Shown: piece after piece, positions 14,816 to 49,560 of the stretch | Layout: each line of letters begins with the position of its first letter | Position numbering within the stretch: the stretch's first letter is position 1 | NCBI RefSeq assembly: GCF_026914185.1 | Contig: NC_070563.1 | Coordinates: forward strand, 186,001-250,000 | Origin: Puccinia triticina | Lineage: Eukaryota; Basidiomycota; Pucciniomycetes; Pucciniales; Pucciniaceae | Length of the DNA stretch: 64,000 bases | Direction: 5' to 3' | Made by a program: the position numbers and the translations under genes | The notes under the pieces: generated by a model | The model's input: the letters and a program-made list of their open reading frames with translations, nothing else | Told to the model about the DNA's origin: nothing | Databases searched by the model: none

Positions 14816-15780
14816 AGCTATACACCCACTTAGACTACACCGGGTTATCCTACTTTTCAGCTTGGTTGTCCTCTTGAAGCTGCATAACATACACCAGGCT
14901 GAAAACAGAGGCAATGCTTCCACATTGCCTGTGTTTTGGGTCCTGATTTTTTATTGGGTTGAGGGAAACCAATTGCTTGTTACCCAGAGCGGAGAGTTGC
15001 ATTAGGTGTTCCACATAGATTTTCATCCTTGCTTCAGTGCTTCCCCTCATCTAAAATCACTATATTATCTACTCAATAGTTTTTTTATCCCATCATCTCA
15101 ATTGAATTTTTCCAAAGTCTCAAGTAATATTTGATGAAAATTTCATTGTACCTAGATGGAAAGATCAATGCAGTTATTTCTATTTCTTATTAATCTCCAG
15201 GTTGGTATTTAAAAATGATTGGGAGTGGTGGCATCATGAATGAGTCAAACTGCCAGATTCATGAAAAAATGAGGCAAGCTGACACTTGGTTCCTGAGTGT
15301 AACATCAGCCAAACAAAGAAAAATCATCATGAGGAAGAAAGAAATATCACTTTTTTAGGTGCAAGGATCTGAATAAATCAAACAAATCTCAGGATAGACC
15401 TCAACAATAAAGAATGAGTTTTGTGTTGGGTATAACCCAATCAGTCAAGCATAAAAAGATATATTAACTCTGGTGCCCATTTCTTATGGCTGTTGTTATC
15501 AGAGGAAAACTAAGTGTTTCTTCCAAATTTGTTTCAGCTCTTGCTATTTTAGAATTTCATGTGAAAGATCATGTGAAAGACCAGTTCTGCCACTGCTTCA
15601 CTGCAGTATTTTGAATGAGCAGGGTCATTGGGGAGATAATTGGTGGTGGTGAGGGTGGGGGAGAATCCTTGCGGGTTTGGAGTAGGGGAGCGCGTGGTTT
15701 CCTCTCATTGAGGATTTAATCAGATGGACCGAGAGGGTGGGCGCGGACTGGAGGATAGGGCAGGGGGTTTTGGGAGGAGA
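14816..15780. other. unassigned sequence
   Basis: This is the interior of the putative outer Helitron. I see no gene, no conserved motif and no clear repeat unit in this stretch. Confidence 0.4.
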
Positions 15781-17060
15781 TCTGAGTCCCATTGATAGCC
15801 AGTCAGACCGGTCAACTGGCCATTGAGAGGTGTGAGTTCCCTCAATGGCCAGTCAGACCAGTCATTGAGAGGTATGAGCCCCCTCAATGGCCGGTCTGAC
15901 TGGTCATCCAGAGATGTGCAGACCGCCAAGGAGGTCAAAGCCTCCCCGGCAAGCAAGGGCACATTCTGACTGCTTGAAGCCAACTTCCTTGGATTCAGAA
16001 CAACCCTGGATGTCCCTGACTGGTCATCCAGAGGAGTAAACCTCTCCAGCTGACTTGTAAACAATTGGACAAGTGTGTACAGGCCAGCATTTTGTCTGCC
16101 CAGGTGCAGGGGCCTGGCAACAGAGTTGTGTTCAGGCAGGTGAAAAGAATGTCAGGGCCCAGGGAAATTGTGTCATGTGCGAGCTGGGACCAATACTTAA
16201 AGGGCTAGGGGGAAGCTGTTTGTCCCCCCAGGGGATCTGGGTTTTGTCCCACCCCCTCCCTGAAGGCCCCCTATTTCATTTGAGTAGGCTCCTTCTTGAT
16301 TGAAAAAAACACAAATTTGAATCTTGAACAAAACTTTAAAATTTAAACTTCAAACTCACACAAAACAAAAAATATGACCACAATCAAAACATACAAAAAA
16401 TAAAATAAACTCAAACAAAACCAAAAATTTACACTCAAACAAAAAATCCAAGTTTATTAAAATCACAGAAACACAGAAGGCAAGATCAAAGTTTTTGCCT
16501 GTGCTCATTAGCAAAAATCCCATAACCATTGAAATTCATCCCCAAACACCCCAGAGGGCACCTCGGATTGACCCTCCAGCCCGTGCCGGAGCAACAGGCA
16601 AAAGAAGGTTGGTCAAAAATGTAATCAAGTGATTAGTGGGCTCCAGGGAGGGGGGTGGGACAAAACCACATCCCCTGGGGGGACAAACAGCTTCCCCCAC
16701 ACCCTTTAAGTATCCAACCAGCTGCACACAACCTGGGCCTTCATGCTTTGCACCCTGAAGGTTGCCAGGGCCCTGCGCCTGGGCAGGCACAATGCTGGCC
16801 TGTACACACTCATCTGGGTGCTTACAGGTCAGCTCCAGGGCCTAAAGAGGGGGCTATGTCTACTCACATCTCTTCTTGATGACCAGTCTGACCGGTCATC
16901 GAGGGGACTCACCTCAATGACCGGCAAAGACCGCTCATTGGGAGGACTGACAGCTGTTGATGACCAATCTGTACCGGTCATTGAGGGGACTCACATCTCC
17001 TCTTGATGACCAGTCTTTGCCGGTCATTGAGGGGACTTGCATCTCCTCTTGATGACCGCT
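15780..17060. repeat. large inverted repeat: two facing Helitron 5' regions with palindrome arrays
   Basis: 15790-16300 is a diverged inverted copy of 16600-17060. Each arm carries a block reading gggacaaa(a)cc...ccccaggggat, a block gtgtacaggccagcat, and an outer array of palindromes (gaccggtcat type; arrays 15790-16040 and 16870-17060). The right arm follows the TCCAAGTTTATTAAAA terminus at 16447. The homologous block also follows the terminus of the Helitron at 27857 (read on minus), including accctccagctgtgcc. This marks both arms as Helitron 5' domains in opposite orientation. Confidence 0.6.
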
Positions 17061-17840
17061 GTGGTATGCTTTATGGTTACCCATCTAGCCCATTTCAAAA
17101 TTTCTTGTTTTCTCATATGTACACTCATGTCAGCCACAGAGTACATGTCACAGTACCTTACACGTACCAAGTACCTGCAATTGTTCACATTACATATAGT
17201 ACATTCATTTTTACACCTTTATTACATATGTATATCATTAGATACAAGCTTAAGAATGTACTCCTGTTATACATTACATCACAGATAACCATAGTTAAAT
17301 ACAGTTACCATAATGTACTGTTGTTATGAGAGTTAAGTTATGTGCAACAGTAAGATTACAATACATTGTAATATCACTGTACACGTGAAATACCCCAAGA
17401 CAGGTATCACCCATTTATCCCCTGTTAAGCCTCAGTCCCCATTTACATAATATATTGGTTATGATATAAATACATAAACAATACATGATGTAATCCAATT
17501 CAAAGAGCACTGAATGGCATCAATGATTGGTTATGATCAGCTAGTGTGCACAGCTACTGATCCAGGATCAGTACTGATCATTTCCAATGTTGATCCTCAT
17601 GAGGATCTGCTTCCCTTGAGCGCTTCCAGTTCCCCCCTGGTCCTGAAGCGCCTCCAAGCGCCTCATATTCCCTCCTGATCTTTCCCCTCTATATAAACAC
17701 GCCCCTCAGGACTGTTTATCCCTCAGAATATTATTACAGCAAAGTTTAACCCATACTATAGTTAAACAGTGCTTTCATTCTCAACCATCATTCAATTCAG
17801 GAATAACATCAACTCTTGATTACCCTTACCTTTCTGTAGG
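17061..17840. other. AT-rich repeat interior with TATA box, no gene
   Basis: No coding sequence was recognised. A TATA-like ctatataaacacgcccc lies at 17689, followed by a CA-rich leader-like stretch, like the other TATA modules of the window. Confidence 0.4.
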
Positions 17841-17842
17841 TA

Positions 17843-47690: not shown

Positions 47691-47939
47691 TCTGTGCTCT
47701 CAAATTTTTAAGCATGTGGTAGATGGGAGAAAGAAGTTATGGTTGTTCATGAATAATAAAAATACAGGTTTACTTCGCGCACGGAGGGAAACTTGTTGCG
47801 CACAGGAATTTCCGTTGACTCGACGTCACGTGACATTGGGCCCCCCTCCGTGCGCGCCATCAGCTCCCCTCAAAAAACTATCCGCACACGGGGGTGCCGT
47901 GCGGTGACAGGTGGCCGGGGTGAAGCACTCCGGCCATCC

Positions 47940-48330
47940 AGAGGAAACAATCCTCTTGCTGACCAGCACAGACCTGTCATCTGGCGGCTACATCCCTCTC
48001 GATGACAGGCATAGACCGGTCATTGAGAGGCTACATCCCTCTCAATGACTGGAATAGATCAGTCATTGGGAGGCTACATCCCTCTTGATGACCAGCATAG
48101 ACCGGTCATCAAGAGGCTACATCCCTCTCAATGACCAGAATAGACTGGTCATTGGGAGGTTACATCCCTCCCAATGGATGACCGGAATTCCGGTAATTGA
48201 GAGAGATGTGTTCTCTTGATGACCAGAATGCTGGTCATTGAGAGAGATGTGTTCTCTCGATGACCAGAATGCCGGTCATTGAAAGAGATGTGTTCTCTTG
48301 ATGACCGGAATGCCGGTGTGGAACTCCTAC
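47940..48330. repeat. palindrome array, left arm
   Basis: Units of the type ctcgatgacaggcatagaccggtcattgagaggctacatcc, mirrored by the right-arm array. Confidence 0.85.
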
Positions 48331-49004
48331 CGTGCCAGGCGGTAGGCAGAGATTTGAGGGGATGGGTGCTGTGTGAGCTGCCCTCGTGGGTGGTCCAAGA
48401 AATGAGATGAGGATCAAAAAGAGTGATAGCGTTGGGGGGGGGGGGGGGGGGGGATTTTTGAGAGACGACGGGGATGGAATACCGTTGGCAGTGGTTGGTT
48501 TGAGGAGGATCAGGTGATGGTGATAAGGGGGATAAGGATCAGGAATAGAGCTGGGGATACTGCCAGCAGATCAGAAAAGGGTGATGGAATTTCTCTTGGA
48601 TCAGAGCAAGTCCCCTGCCATCCCATCCTCCAAGTTCGAACTCAAACTTGGACTCTGGGGAGTGACATGTCACAGGACATGTCATCACATCCCTAACTAC
48701 AAACATCAAACAGGAAAAGAGGAACAAAAGAAGAAACACAAGAAAACACCACAACAATCAAATGATAAAGAATCTAAACAGAAAACAAAACAAGACAGAA
48801 CAAAACCCACATTACTCATGTGTTAGGACCAAGAAAGGAAAAGAAAGAATCTGGGAGGGATTGAAAATCTTGAGGAAGTGAGAAAGTGAGGGAAGGGATC
48901 ATCTTGAGGATGAATCTTGAGGCTGCAGGGTCTTGCTGGTGAGATTGCTGATCTTGCTGACTTGATGATTTTGATGATCTGGAGGGCCTGTACTGGTTTG
49001 AACA

Positions 49005-49560
49005 CCACACCGGTCATTGAGAGAGATGTATCCTCTTGGTGACCGGTCTACTCAGGTCATCGGGAGGGATGTAACCTCCTGATGACCGGTCTATTCCGGT
49101 CATTGAGAGGGATGTAGCCTCCCGATGACTGGTCTATTCCAGTCATCAAGAGGGATCTAGCCTCCCAATGACCGGTCTATGCCGGTCATCAAGAGGGATG
49201 TAGCCTCCCAATGACCGGTGACCGGTCTATTCCGGTCATTGAGAGGATTTTAGCCTCCCAATGACCGGTCTGTACGGTCATCAAGAGGGATGTAGCCTCC
49301 CAATGACCGGTCTGTACCGGTCATTGAGGGGGAAGTGTCCTCTTGATGACGGGGATGCCGGTCATTGAGAGAGATGTGATATACCCTCTCAATGACCGGT
49401 CTATTCCGGTCATCGAGAGGGATGTAGCCTCTCAATGACCGGTCTGTGCCGGTCATCGGGAGAGATGTAAACTCCCAATGACCGGTCTATTCCAGTCATT
49501 GAGAGGGATGTAGTCTCTTGATGACCGGTCTGTGCCGGTCATCAAGGGTTTTGTTTCCTC
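49005..49560. repeat. palindrome array, right arm, 43-bp period
   Basis: The best unit is CCTCTCAATGACCGG + TCTATT + CCGGTCATTGAGAGG + GATGTAG: 15-base arms, 6-base loop and 7-base spacer. About 12 units. Arms vary between units mostly by changes that keep pairing (A-T or G-T). Confidence 0.88.

What the first reader, a model, noticed from the sequence alone, without database searches (positions are those of the whole stretch)
15780..49560. One hairpin-array motif shared by transposons of several unrelated classes
Arrays of perfect or near-perfect palindromes around GATGACCGG / CCGGTCATC lie inside a MULE-type fold-back (47765-49735), a 3-bp-TSD TIR pair (20873-22090, 28094-32174), a hAT-like element (38150-39060, variant core) and Helitron 5' domains (15790-17060, 22590-22870). 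Terminal sequences and TSD lengths differ, yet the array core is the same, while loops and spacers are element-specific (for example GATGTAG in the 43-bp unit). Arms differ between units mainly in ways that keep pairing. This suggests either a module that moves between elements, a binding site for one shared protein, or selection for hairpin transcripts (small-RNA precursors). I know of no described family that explains it. The family-level links are inference.
Basis: partly seen in the sequence, partly recalled or inferred. Interest (0 to 1): 0.88.

Follow-up and report, generated by a model that had tools for sequence, protein, structure and literature searches.

The report
Shared inverted-motif array in unrelated transposons
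In a rust-fungus genome, short "jumping genes" of several unrelated families carry the same array of a short sequence repeated in mirror-image pairs, in two families sitting where a gene-bearing relative holds its gene for moving, which suggests one shared factor that many transposons exploit.

Summary
The window lies in a Puccinia genome (122.8 Mb, 18 contigs, P. triticina-like). Exact hairpins GATGACCGG-N0-30-CCGGTCATC occur 3436 times, the reversed pattern once. Arrays sit in short elements with largely unrelated ends and different target duplications: hAT (8 bp), PIF/Harbinger (TNA), CAC-ended (3 bp), a long-TIR family (mostly 8 bp) and others. For two superfamilies one gene-bearing relative with the same ends was read; neither has arms within one mismatch, and in the short copies the array lies between the shared ends. 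Across groups a discrete 15-nt arm (CCTCTYGATGACCGG) is kept while loops and spacers are near random. Arms alternate in orientation in 645 of 684 close pairs. "Arms differ mainly in ways that keep pairing" fails: most changes are unmatched, with a small excess in the hairpin register. The MULE, Helitron and hAT labels for window elements E, A and D were not confirmed. Best reading: a portable cis-module captured by many transposons and kept for a sequence-specific factor (inference). Neutral filler, hairpin RNA and a mobile hairpin remain open.

The parts
47765..49736 (.). Element E: short long-TIR fold-back element with arrays in both halves; 8-bp TSD TAAAAATA (47757-47764 / 49737-49744)
   Evidence: Read; inverted halves; TSD; at least 40 genome TIR hits (only 40 of 257 candidates scored)
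47930..48317 (.). Left hairpin array of E (43-bp and 41-bp units)
49010..49571 (.). Right hairpin array of E (43-bp unit, spacer GATGTAG)
20873..22090 (.). Element B: CACYGCCAGC-ended element, self-inverted over its whole length (86%), 3-bp TSD CTA; array of variant core GATGGCCGG
   Evidence: TSDs of 5 further copies; at least 40 TIR hits (40 of 179 candidates scored)
21022..21944 (.). Hairpin array of B
28094..32174 (.). Element C: CACCACCCGC-ended element, 3-bp TSD TGG, interrupted by two LTR-like insertions
   Evidence: TSDs of 3 further copies; TIR hits
28203..28300 (.). Left array piece of C
29163..29560 (.). Array piece of C
30499..30658 (.). Array piece of C between the two LTR-like insertions
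31767..32040 (.). Right array piece of C
29561..30498 (+). LTR-like insertion in the array, flanks CCGG / CTGG
30659..31766 (+). LTR-like insertion in the array, flanks CCGG / CTGG
15790..17059 (.). Element A, left portion: fold-back arms 16048-16286 / 16622-16834 and hairpin arrays
17060..22581 (+). LTR-like insertion splitting array A (TGTGGTATG...TTTACA, CCGC on both sides); itself hosts a tRNA-bearing TRIM-like element, a 702-bp element and element B
22582..22870 (.). Element A, right portion of the same array (inference)
   Evidence: 80% match of 16862-17057 to 22644-22839
38150..39060 (.). Element D: old array of variant hairpins; no TIR with TSD found

Best explanation
The arrays are one portable cis-module: inverted pairs of a 15-nt arm, CCTCTYGATGRCCGG, with loops of mostly 4-9 nt, repeated about every 41-50 bp in A, B and E. 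Short derivatives of several DNA-transposon superfamilies have acquired it in the interior. In two superfamilies it lies between ends shared with a relative that holds transposase sequence there instead (shown, one such relative read in each). Capture probably happens by template switching during gap repair after excision (inference). The module is kept because a sequence-specific factor recognises the arm (inference from arm conservation against near-random loops and spacers). Arrays then act as multivalent docking platforms that help short copies propagate or escape silencing (inference). Each element still moves by the transposase that fits its own ends (inference from its TSD).
For: Genome-wide enrichment 3436 vs 1. 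Family ends unrelated by alignment except E-L069 (z 14) and G-L065 (z 15.7); the other pairs have z up to 3.4, except a short E-T patch of 20/27, z 5.0. TSDs differ by family: 3 bp in B (6 of 6) and C (4 of 4), 8 bp in hAT-like T (4 of 4), TNA in Harbinger-like, mostly 8 bp in E. L083, 3220 bp, same TIR as array-bearing L067 and L095, has DDE_Tnp_4 and Myb_DNA-bind_3 matches and 0 arms within one mismatch; L095 has 33. L097, 3797 bp, same ends and TSD length as L076 and L092-L094, has a fragment like proteins named HAT C-terminal dimerisation and 0 arms; L093 has 20. L095 = 273 bp like one L083 end (81%) + array + 228 bp like the other (89%); L093 = 141 bp of the L097 left end (94%) + array + right end in pieces at 69-81%. 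Between-group identity: spacer 0.27, outer arm (not used for ascertainment) 0.56, core 0.88 (ascertained), loop 0.31. Alternating orientation in 645 of 684 neighbour pairs within 26 bp.
Against: No binding factor is identified; no expression, methylation, small-RNA or binding data were available. The survey was ascertained by the exact core, so only the outer six arm positions are an unbiased test, and 13 of the 20 groups are not defined by ends and may be related. A gene-bearing relative was read in two families, one copy each, not shown to be functional; Pfam found no hAT domain in six L097 pieces. None was found for B, C, E, G or the L075 type. Variable loop length fits poorly with a rigid dimer site; strict alternation is not needed for independent monomer sites and leaves structure-based readings open. 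662 mixed hairpins (GATGGCCGG with CCGGTCATC) show that an arm change is tolerated. No other rust genome could be searched.
Confidence: 0.45

Rival explanations
1. Neutral hitch-hiking: the array is a recombinogenic palindromic minisatellite captured as filler when transposon interiors are lost; arms are homogenised by fold-back templating or conversion, with no function.
For: Unit number varies among E copies (14 to 34 hairpin units counted). A small excess of matched arm changes in the hairpin register but not in the spacer register is what fold-back templating would give. Most best matches between arrays of different end types are only about 67-78% identical, so arrays diverge freely outside the arms.
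Against: Does not easily explain why the same 15-nt arm is kept across unrelated families while adjacent spacers and loops are near random, or why 7 of 8 de novo hairpin clusters are of this one type.
Confidence: 0.28
2. Hairpin RNA: transcripts of the arrays fold and feed RNAi or another RNA pathway, silencing or shielding the elements.
For: A 300-nt piece of array E folds far better than shuffles as RNA (z -12). For the related stripe rust, small RNAs from long inverted repeats and from hAT and MuDR elements are reported (PMC4578785, passages).
Against: The predicted fold pairs distant units as well as neighbouring arms. Any palindrome would do for pairing, yet the sequence is conserved. Most arm changes are unmatched. 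No small-RNA data could be mapped here.
Confidence: 0.17
3. The hairpin is itself a mobile unit, spread between host elements by an enzyme that recognises the arm, as REP palindromes relate to RAYT proteins in bacteria (recalled).
For: Discrete unit with conserved stem and variable loop, as described for sponge mitochondrial hairpin elements (PMC2800124, passages).
Against: No lone unit with an insertion signature was looked for; units occur as arrays with family-specific loops, which suggests local amplification.
Confidence: 0.07

Closest known systems
Foldback-type elements and Galileo: long, internally repetitive TIRs with several transposase THAP-domain binding sites (PMC3688188, abstract and passages)
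   Same: Repeats in inverted halves, proposed to raise binding multivalency
   Different: There the sites belong to one element's own transposase; here the motif occurs in several superfamilies and is absent from the two gene-bearing relatives read
Tetris of Drosophila virilis (PMC4079207, abstract and section list)
   Same: Non-autonomous fold-back element with internal tandem repeats
   Different: One family, about 220-bp repeats; a motif shared across superfamilies is not described in the abstract
BrickBuilt MITE of Porphyromonas gingivalis (PMC4596501, abstract and section list)
   Same: Minisatellite inside a MITE
   Different: Bacterial, one family, 23-nt tandem repeats without spacers
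Repetitive hairpin-forming elements of mitochondria (PMC2800124, passages)
   Same: Conserved stems, differing loops, hairpins sometimes in tandem
   Different: Organellar, not cargo of DNA transposons
CACTA (En/Spm) subterminal repeats bound by TNPA (recalled)
   Same: Short motif in both orientations inside a transposon
   Different: Subterminal, one superfamily, part of the coding element

Membership tests
PIF/Harbinger (H1: L067, L095, L096, L083) | 3-bp TNA target duplication and shared TIR | tested here: met
   TAA (L067), TGA (L095), TTA (L083); L096 left end only
PIF/Harbinger (H1: L067, L095, L096, L083) | Relative with the same ends holding DDE_Tnp_4 transposase and a Myb-like ORF | tested here: met
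   L083 pieces
hAT (T: L076, L092-L094, L097) | 8-bp target duplication | tested here: met
   4 of 4 array copies and L097
hAT (T: L076, L092-L094, L097) | Relative with the same ends holding hAT transposase sequence | tested here: met
   One L097 fragment matches proteins named HAT C-terminal dimerisation; against it, Pfam found no hAT domain in six L097 pieces and a PDB search with one piece found nothing
CACTA/EnSpm (B, C) | Ends CAC... and 3-bp TSD (definition recalled) | tested here: met
   B 6 of 6, C 4 of 4; B duplications end in A and 5 of 6 fit TNA, so PIF/Harbinger is not excluded for B
CACTA/EnSpm (B, C) | Transposase of the superfamily in a relative with the same ends | not tested
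   no gene-bearing relative was sought
MULE (E) | About 9-bp target duplication (definition recalled; 8-11 bp also occurs) | tested here: inconclusive
   8 of 11 copies read as 8 bp, one 9, two ambiguous; window copy 8
MULE (E) | MULE transposase in a relative with the same ends | not tested
   no gene-bearing relative identified
Helitron (A) | 5'-TC, 3' hairpin and CTRR end, insertion between A and T (recalled) | not tested
   array explained as one split by an LTR-like insertion
hAT (window element D) | TIR with 8-bp TSD | tested here: inconclusive
   none found in flanks 37300-38260 and 39010-39900; the element is old and ends may have decayed

The most novel reading that the evidence does not exclude
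A cross-superfamily cis-module: short derivatives of unrelated DNA transposons in one genome have each come to carry, in place of the transposase gene, the same array of a 15-nt inverted-pair motif, because a single factor that binds it raises the success of any transposon carrying it.
Probability: 0.33. Interest if true: 0.87.

Novelty: new variant of a known kind. Interest (0 to 1): 0.68.

Why it matters
Non-autonomous transposons are usually understood as ends plus arbitrary filler. Here the filler is the same conserved module in families with different ends, so the success of short elements may depend on a shared host or element factor and not on the ends alone. The genome holds thousands of copies, so conservation, small-RNA, methylation and expression tests are possible with public data.

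Tried and rejected
Compensatory evolution as the main signal: rejected. Within-element permutation gave 2984 matched positions vs 2987 expected in E and 2255 vs 2270 in other elements. The second test, de-duplicated within families, gave a small excess in the loop register (CpG cells 79 vs 63.7, 7 of 1000 permutations reach it; other transitions 50 vs 42.5, 89 of 1000; transversions 30 vs 22.4, 68 of 1000). The spacer register showed a deficit (75 vs 85.7, 45 vs 64.9, 28 vs 34.7). An intermediate count with near-identical copies not merged gave a stronger transversion excess outside E (83 vs 68.1, 0 of 1000) and none in E (2 vs 3.8); I set it aside because copies were counted repeatedly. Genome-wide at the A/G position: both arms A 3436, both G 147, mixed 323 + 339 = 662. 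Independence from the arm frequencies would give about 54 both-G and 848 mixed (own arithmetic), so matched arms are in excess; but differences between families alone would do this, and 662 of 809 changed hairpins are unmatched.

CpG decay as the only source of arm variation: partly rejected. From the table, CpG positions vary about 4.7 times as often as other inner positions, and 5 of 6 changes in the left TIR of window E against L049 are CpG transitions. But in window E arms, loosely matched, transversions (62) and other transitions (57) outnumber CpG-site transitions (46).

Hairpin-targeted LTR insertion: not supported as a special target. 17 of 21 5'-LTR flanks have NCGN, and of these 21 only the window's own copy lies in an array. 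Against this: related LTR sequence lies beside or near the array in 3 of the 20 surveyed loci (L001, L074 adjoining, L079 about 340 bp away), and three such insertions lie in window arrays, so enrichment in CCGG-rich arrays is possible and was not measured.

Other rusts through proteins: an array-coded ORF found nothing.

Survey limits: one search listed only the first places. They form about 25 clusters in the first 2.7 Mb of contig 1, of which I fetched 20. TIR with TSD was found by script in 6 of 20 (L065, L067, L069, L071, L075, L076), plus the left end of L068 by eye; the rest are unassigned. In mismatched flank pairs (200, all 380) scores reach 50, but none has a TIR of 16 or more with a TSD of 8 or more. 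By that mark L065, L069, L071 and L076 stand, L067 rests on its further copies, and L075 (score 20-26) is uncertain.
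Full report
What was checked. The window (64 kb) lies at G000:C6:186001-250000 in a genome of 122.8 Mb in 18 contigs. The copia ORF is closest to a Puccinia coronata protein (58%; only the 7991 best candidates were scored). A P. 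triticina 1-1 BBBD protein (P0029) has a 99% match in the genome, and P. triticina haplotypes are 121.6-123.9 Mb (PMC12210899, passages). I take it as P. triticina or a close relative (inference). The motif is enriched in the window (110 vs 9.3) and in the genome (3436 vs 1; 15-nt arms 431 vs 0; variant core 147 vs 0). A hairpin scan without the motif gives 61 in the window against 0-5 in five shuffles.

Elements in the window. B (20873-22090) ends in CACCGCCAGC with TSD CTA; the paralogue near 19461 lacks it. C (28094-32174) ends in CACCACCCGC with TSD TGG and holds two LTR-like insertions. E (47765-49736) has long TIRs and TSD TAAAAATA. A reads as one array split by an LTR-like insertion at 17060-22581 with CCGC on both sides. 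D is an old array without detectable ends.

Elements in the genome. Of about 25 array clusters listed on contig 1, 20 were fetched. L067 has TIR GGCCCCGTTTGG and TSD TAA. L076 has TIR TAAGGATCGCC and an 8-bp TSD. L071 has TIR GGGTCAGCC and a 9-bp TSD; L065 has the same type of end, with an 8-bp TSD that has one mismatch. L069 has an E-type end with an 8-bp TSD. L075 has GAGCATCC with TAA and is uncertain. Extra copies gave consistent TSDs: B TTA, CCA, TGA, TCA, TTA; C TAT, CAA, CAC; hAT-like CCCAAAAC, ATCTCCTA, GACACAGG; E mostly 8 bp (the others read by eye). Ends of the families are unrelated by alignment except E with L069 and G with L065; E with T shows a short patch (20/27, z 5.0), the rest z up to 3.4.

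Gene-bearing relatives without the array. L083 (3220 bp, TSD TTA) has the same TIR as L067 and L095; its ORF pieces match DDE_Tnp_4 and Myb_DNA-bind_3. It has no arm within one mismatch (8 within two), against 33 within one in L095. L097 (3797 bp, TSD CTTGATCT) has the same ends as L076 and L092-L094; one piece matches proteins named HAT C-terminal dimerisation. It has no arm within one mismatch (7 within two), against 20 in L093. Pfam found no hAT domain in six L097 pieces. In one search, seven end matches cover exactly query bases 1-122, the part before the hairpins; six of these have a hAT C-terminal match within about 170 bp, each with a stop inside, so they may be remnants. Alignments show that L095 and L093 resemble both ends of the gene-bearing relative and have the array between. 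So in two superfamilies the array is absent from the relative read here, which argues against its being that transposase's own subterminal repeat. Element-specific repeats near the ends (GGGTACC-type in the hAT family, GGAGTGC-type in L071) exist in addition to the array (by eye). For B, C, E, G and L075 no gene-bearing relative was read.

Arm constraint. Averaged over pairs of 20 groups (7 of them defined by ends), identity per position is 0.27 in the spacer (-14 to -7), 0.56 in the outer arm (-6 to -1, not used for ascertainment), 0.88 in the core (ascertained) and 0.31 in the loop; for the 7 end-defined families 0.26, 0.59, 0.89 and 0.34. Loop length is family-specific: 4-5 in L067-type, 6 in hAT-like and B, 6 and 9 in C, 8 in L001 and L066, 4 and 6 in E. 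Orientation alternates in 645 of 684 neighbour pairs within 26 bp.

Pairing. In the first test matched positions equal permutation. In the second there is a small excess in the hairpin register and a deficit in the spacer register, but 373 of 452 changed CpG cells and 393 of 423 transversion cells are unmatched. Genome-wide, 147 hairpins have GATGGCCGG on both arms and 662 on one; this is more matching than independence gives, but family differences alone would do that. Generic pairing is therefore not the main constraint, though a weak hairpin-level process is not excluded. RNA of one array piece folds strongly (z -12), with pairing across distant units.

Reading. The sequence-specific arm, near-random loops, acquired position and presence in several superfamilies favour a shared recognition module (inference, 0.45). 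Neutral filler (0.28), RNA hairpins (0.17) and a mobile hairpin (0.07) remain.

Literature. Eight paper searches, seen as listings, showed no title or abstract start describing this array or one motif shared across superfamilies. The rust transposon paper PMC12210899 has no 'hairpin' or 'palindrom' in its main text. The library lacks most subscription journals, so this is weak evidence of absence.

Noticed in passing
19350-22187: TRIM-like element with about 215-bp LTRs, TSD AAATG, and a tRNA gene (Rfam, 19457-19542) inside the LTR; element B is inserted in its second LTR.
   Followed up: partly
17841-18542 and 43891-44592: Two 702-bp copies, 100% identical, with inverted ends TATGGTGCATCAAGCC; evidently recent movement.
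   Followed up: no
29561, 30659, 17060; L005-L034: An LTR family with NCGN before 17 of 21 5' LTRs, which makes CCGG-rich arrays likely targets.
   Followed up: partly
43000-47032: Decayed region that looks like a MULE transposase and an OTU-like domain (recalled resemblance; Pfam gave no hit on the pieces tried).
   Followed up: no
L098:100-2030: The interior of a 3.5-kb E copy translates into repeated peptides; it looks like a degenerate minisatellite, not a transposase gene.
   Followed up: no
L071:84-420; L093:31-171: Family-specific subterminal repeats (GGAGTGC/GCACTCC; GGGTACC/GCGGGT) lie between the ends and the shared array.
   Followed up: no
36995-37925, 40762-41317: Further fold-back repeats, about 93% identical in inverted orientation, beside array D.
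   Followed up: no
L099-L178: The same 18-base palindrome recurs at several places in Chromobacterium amazonense, perhaps a terminator-like repeat of that genome.
   Followed up: no
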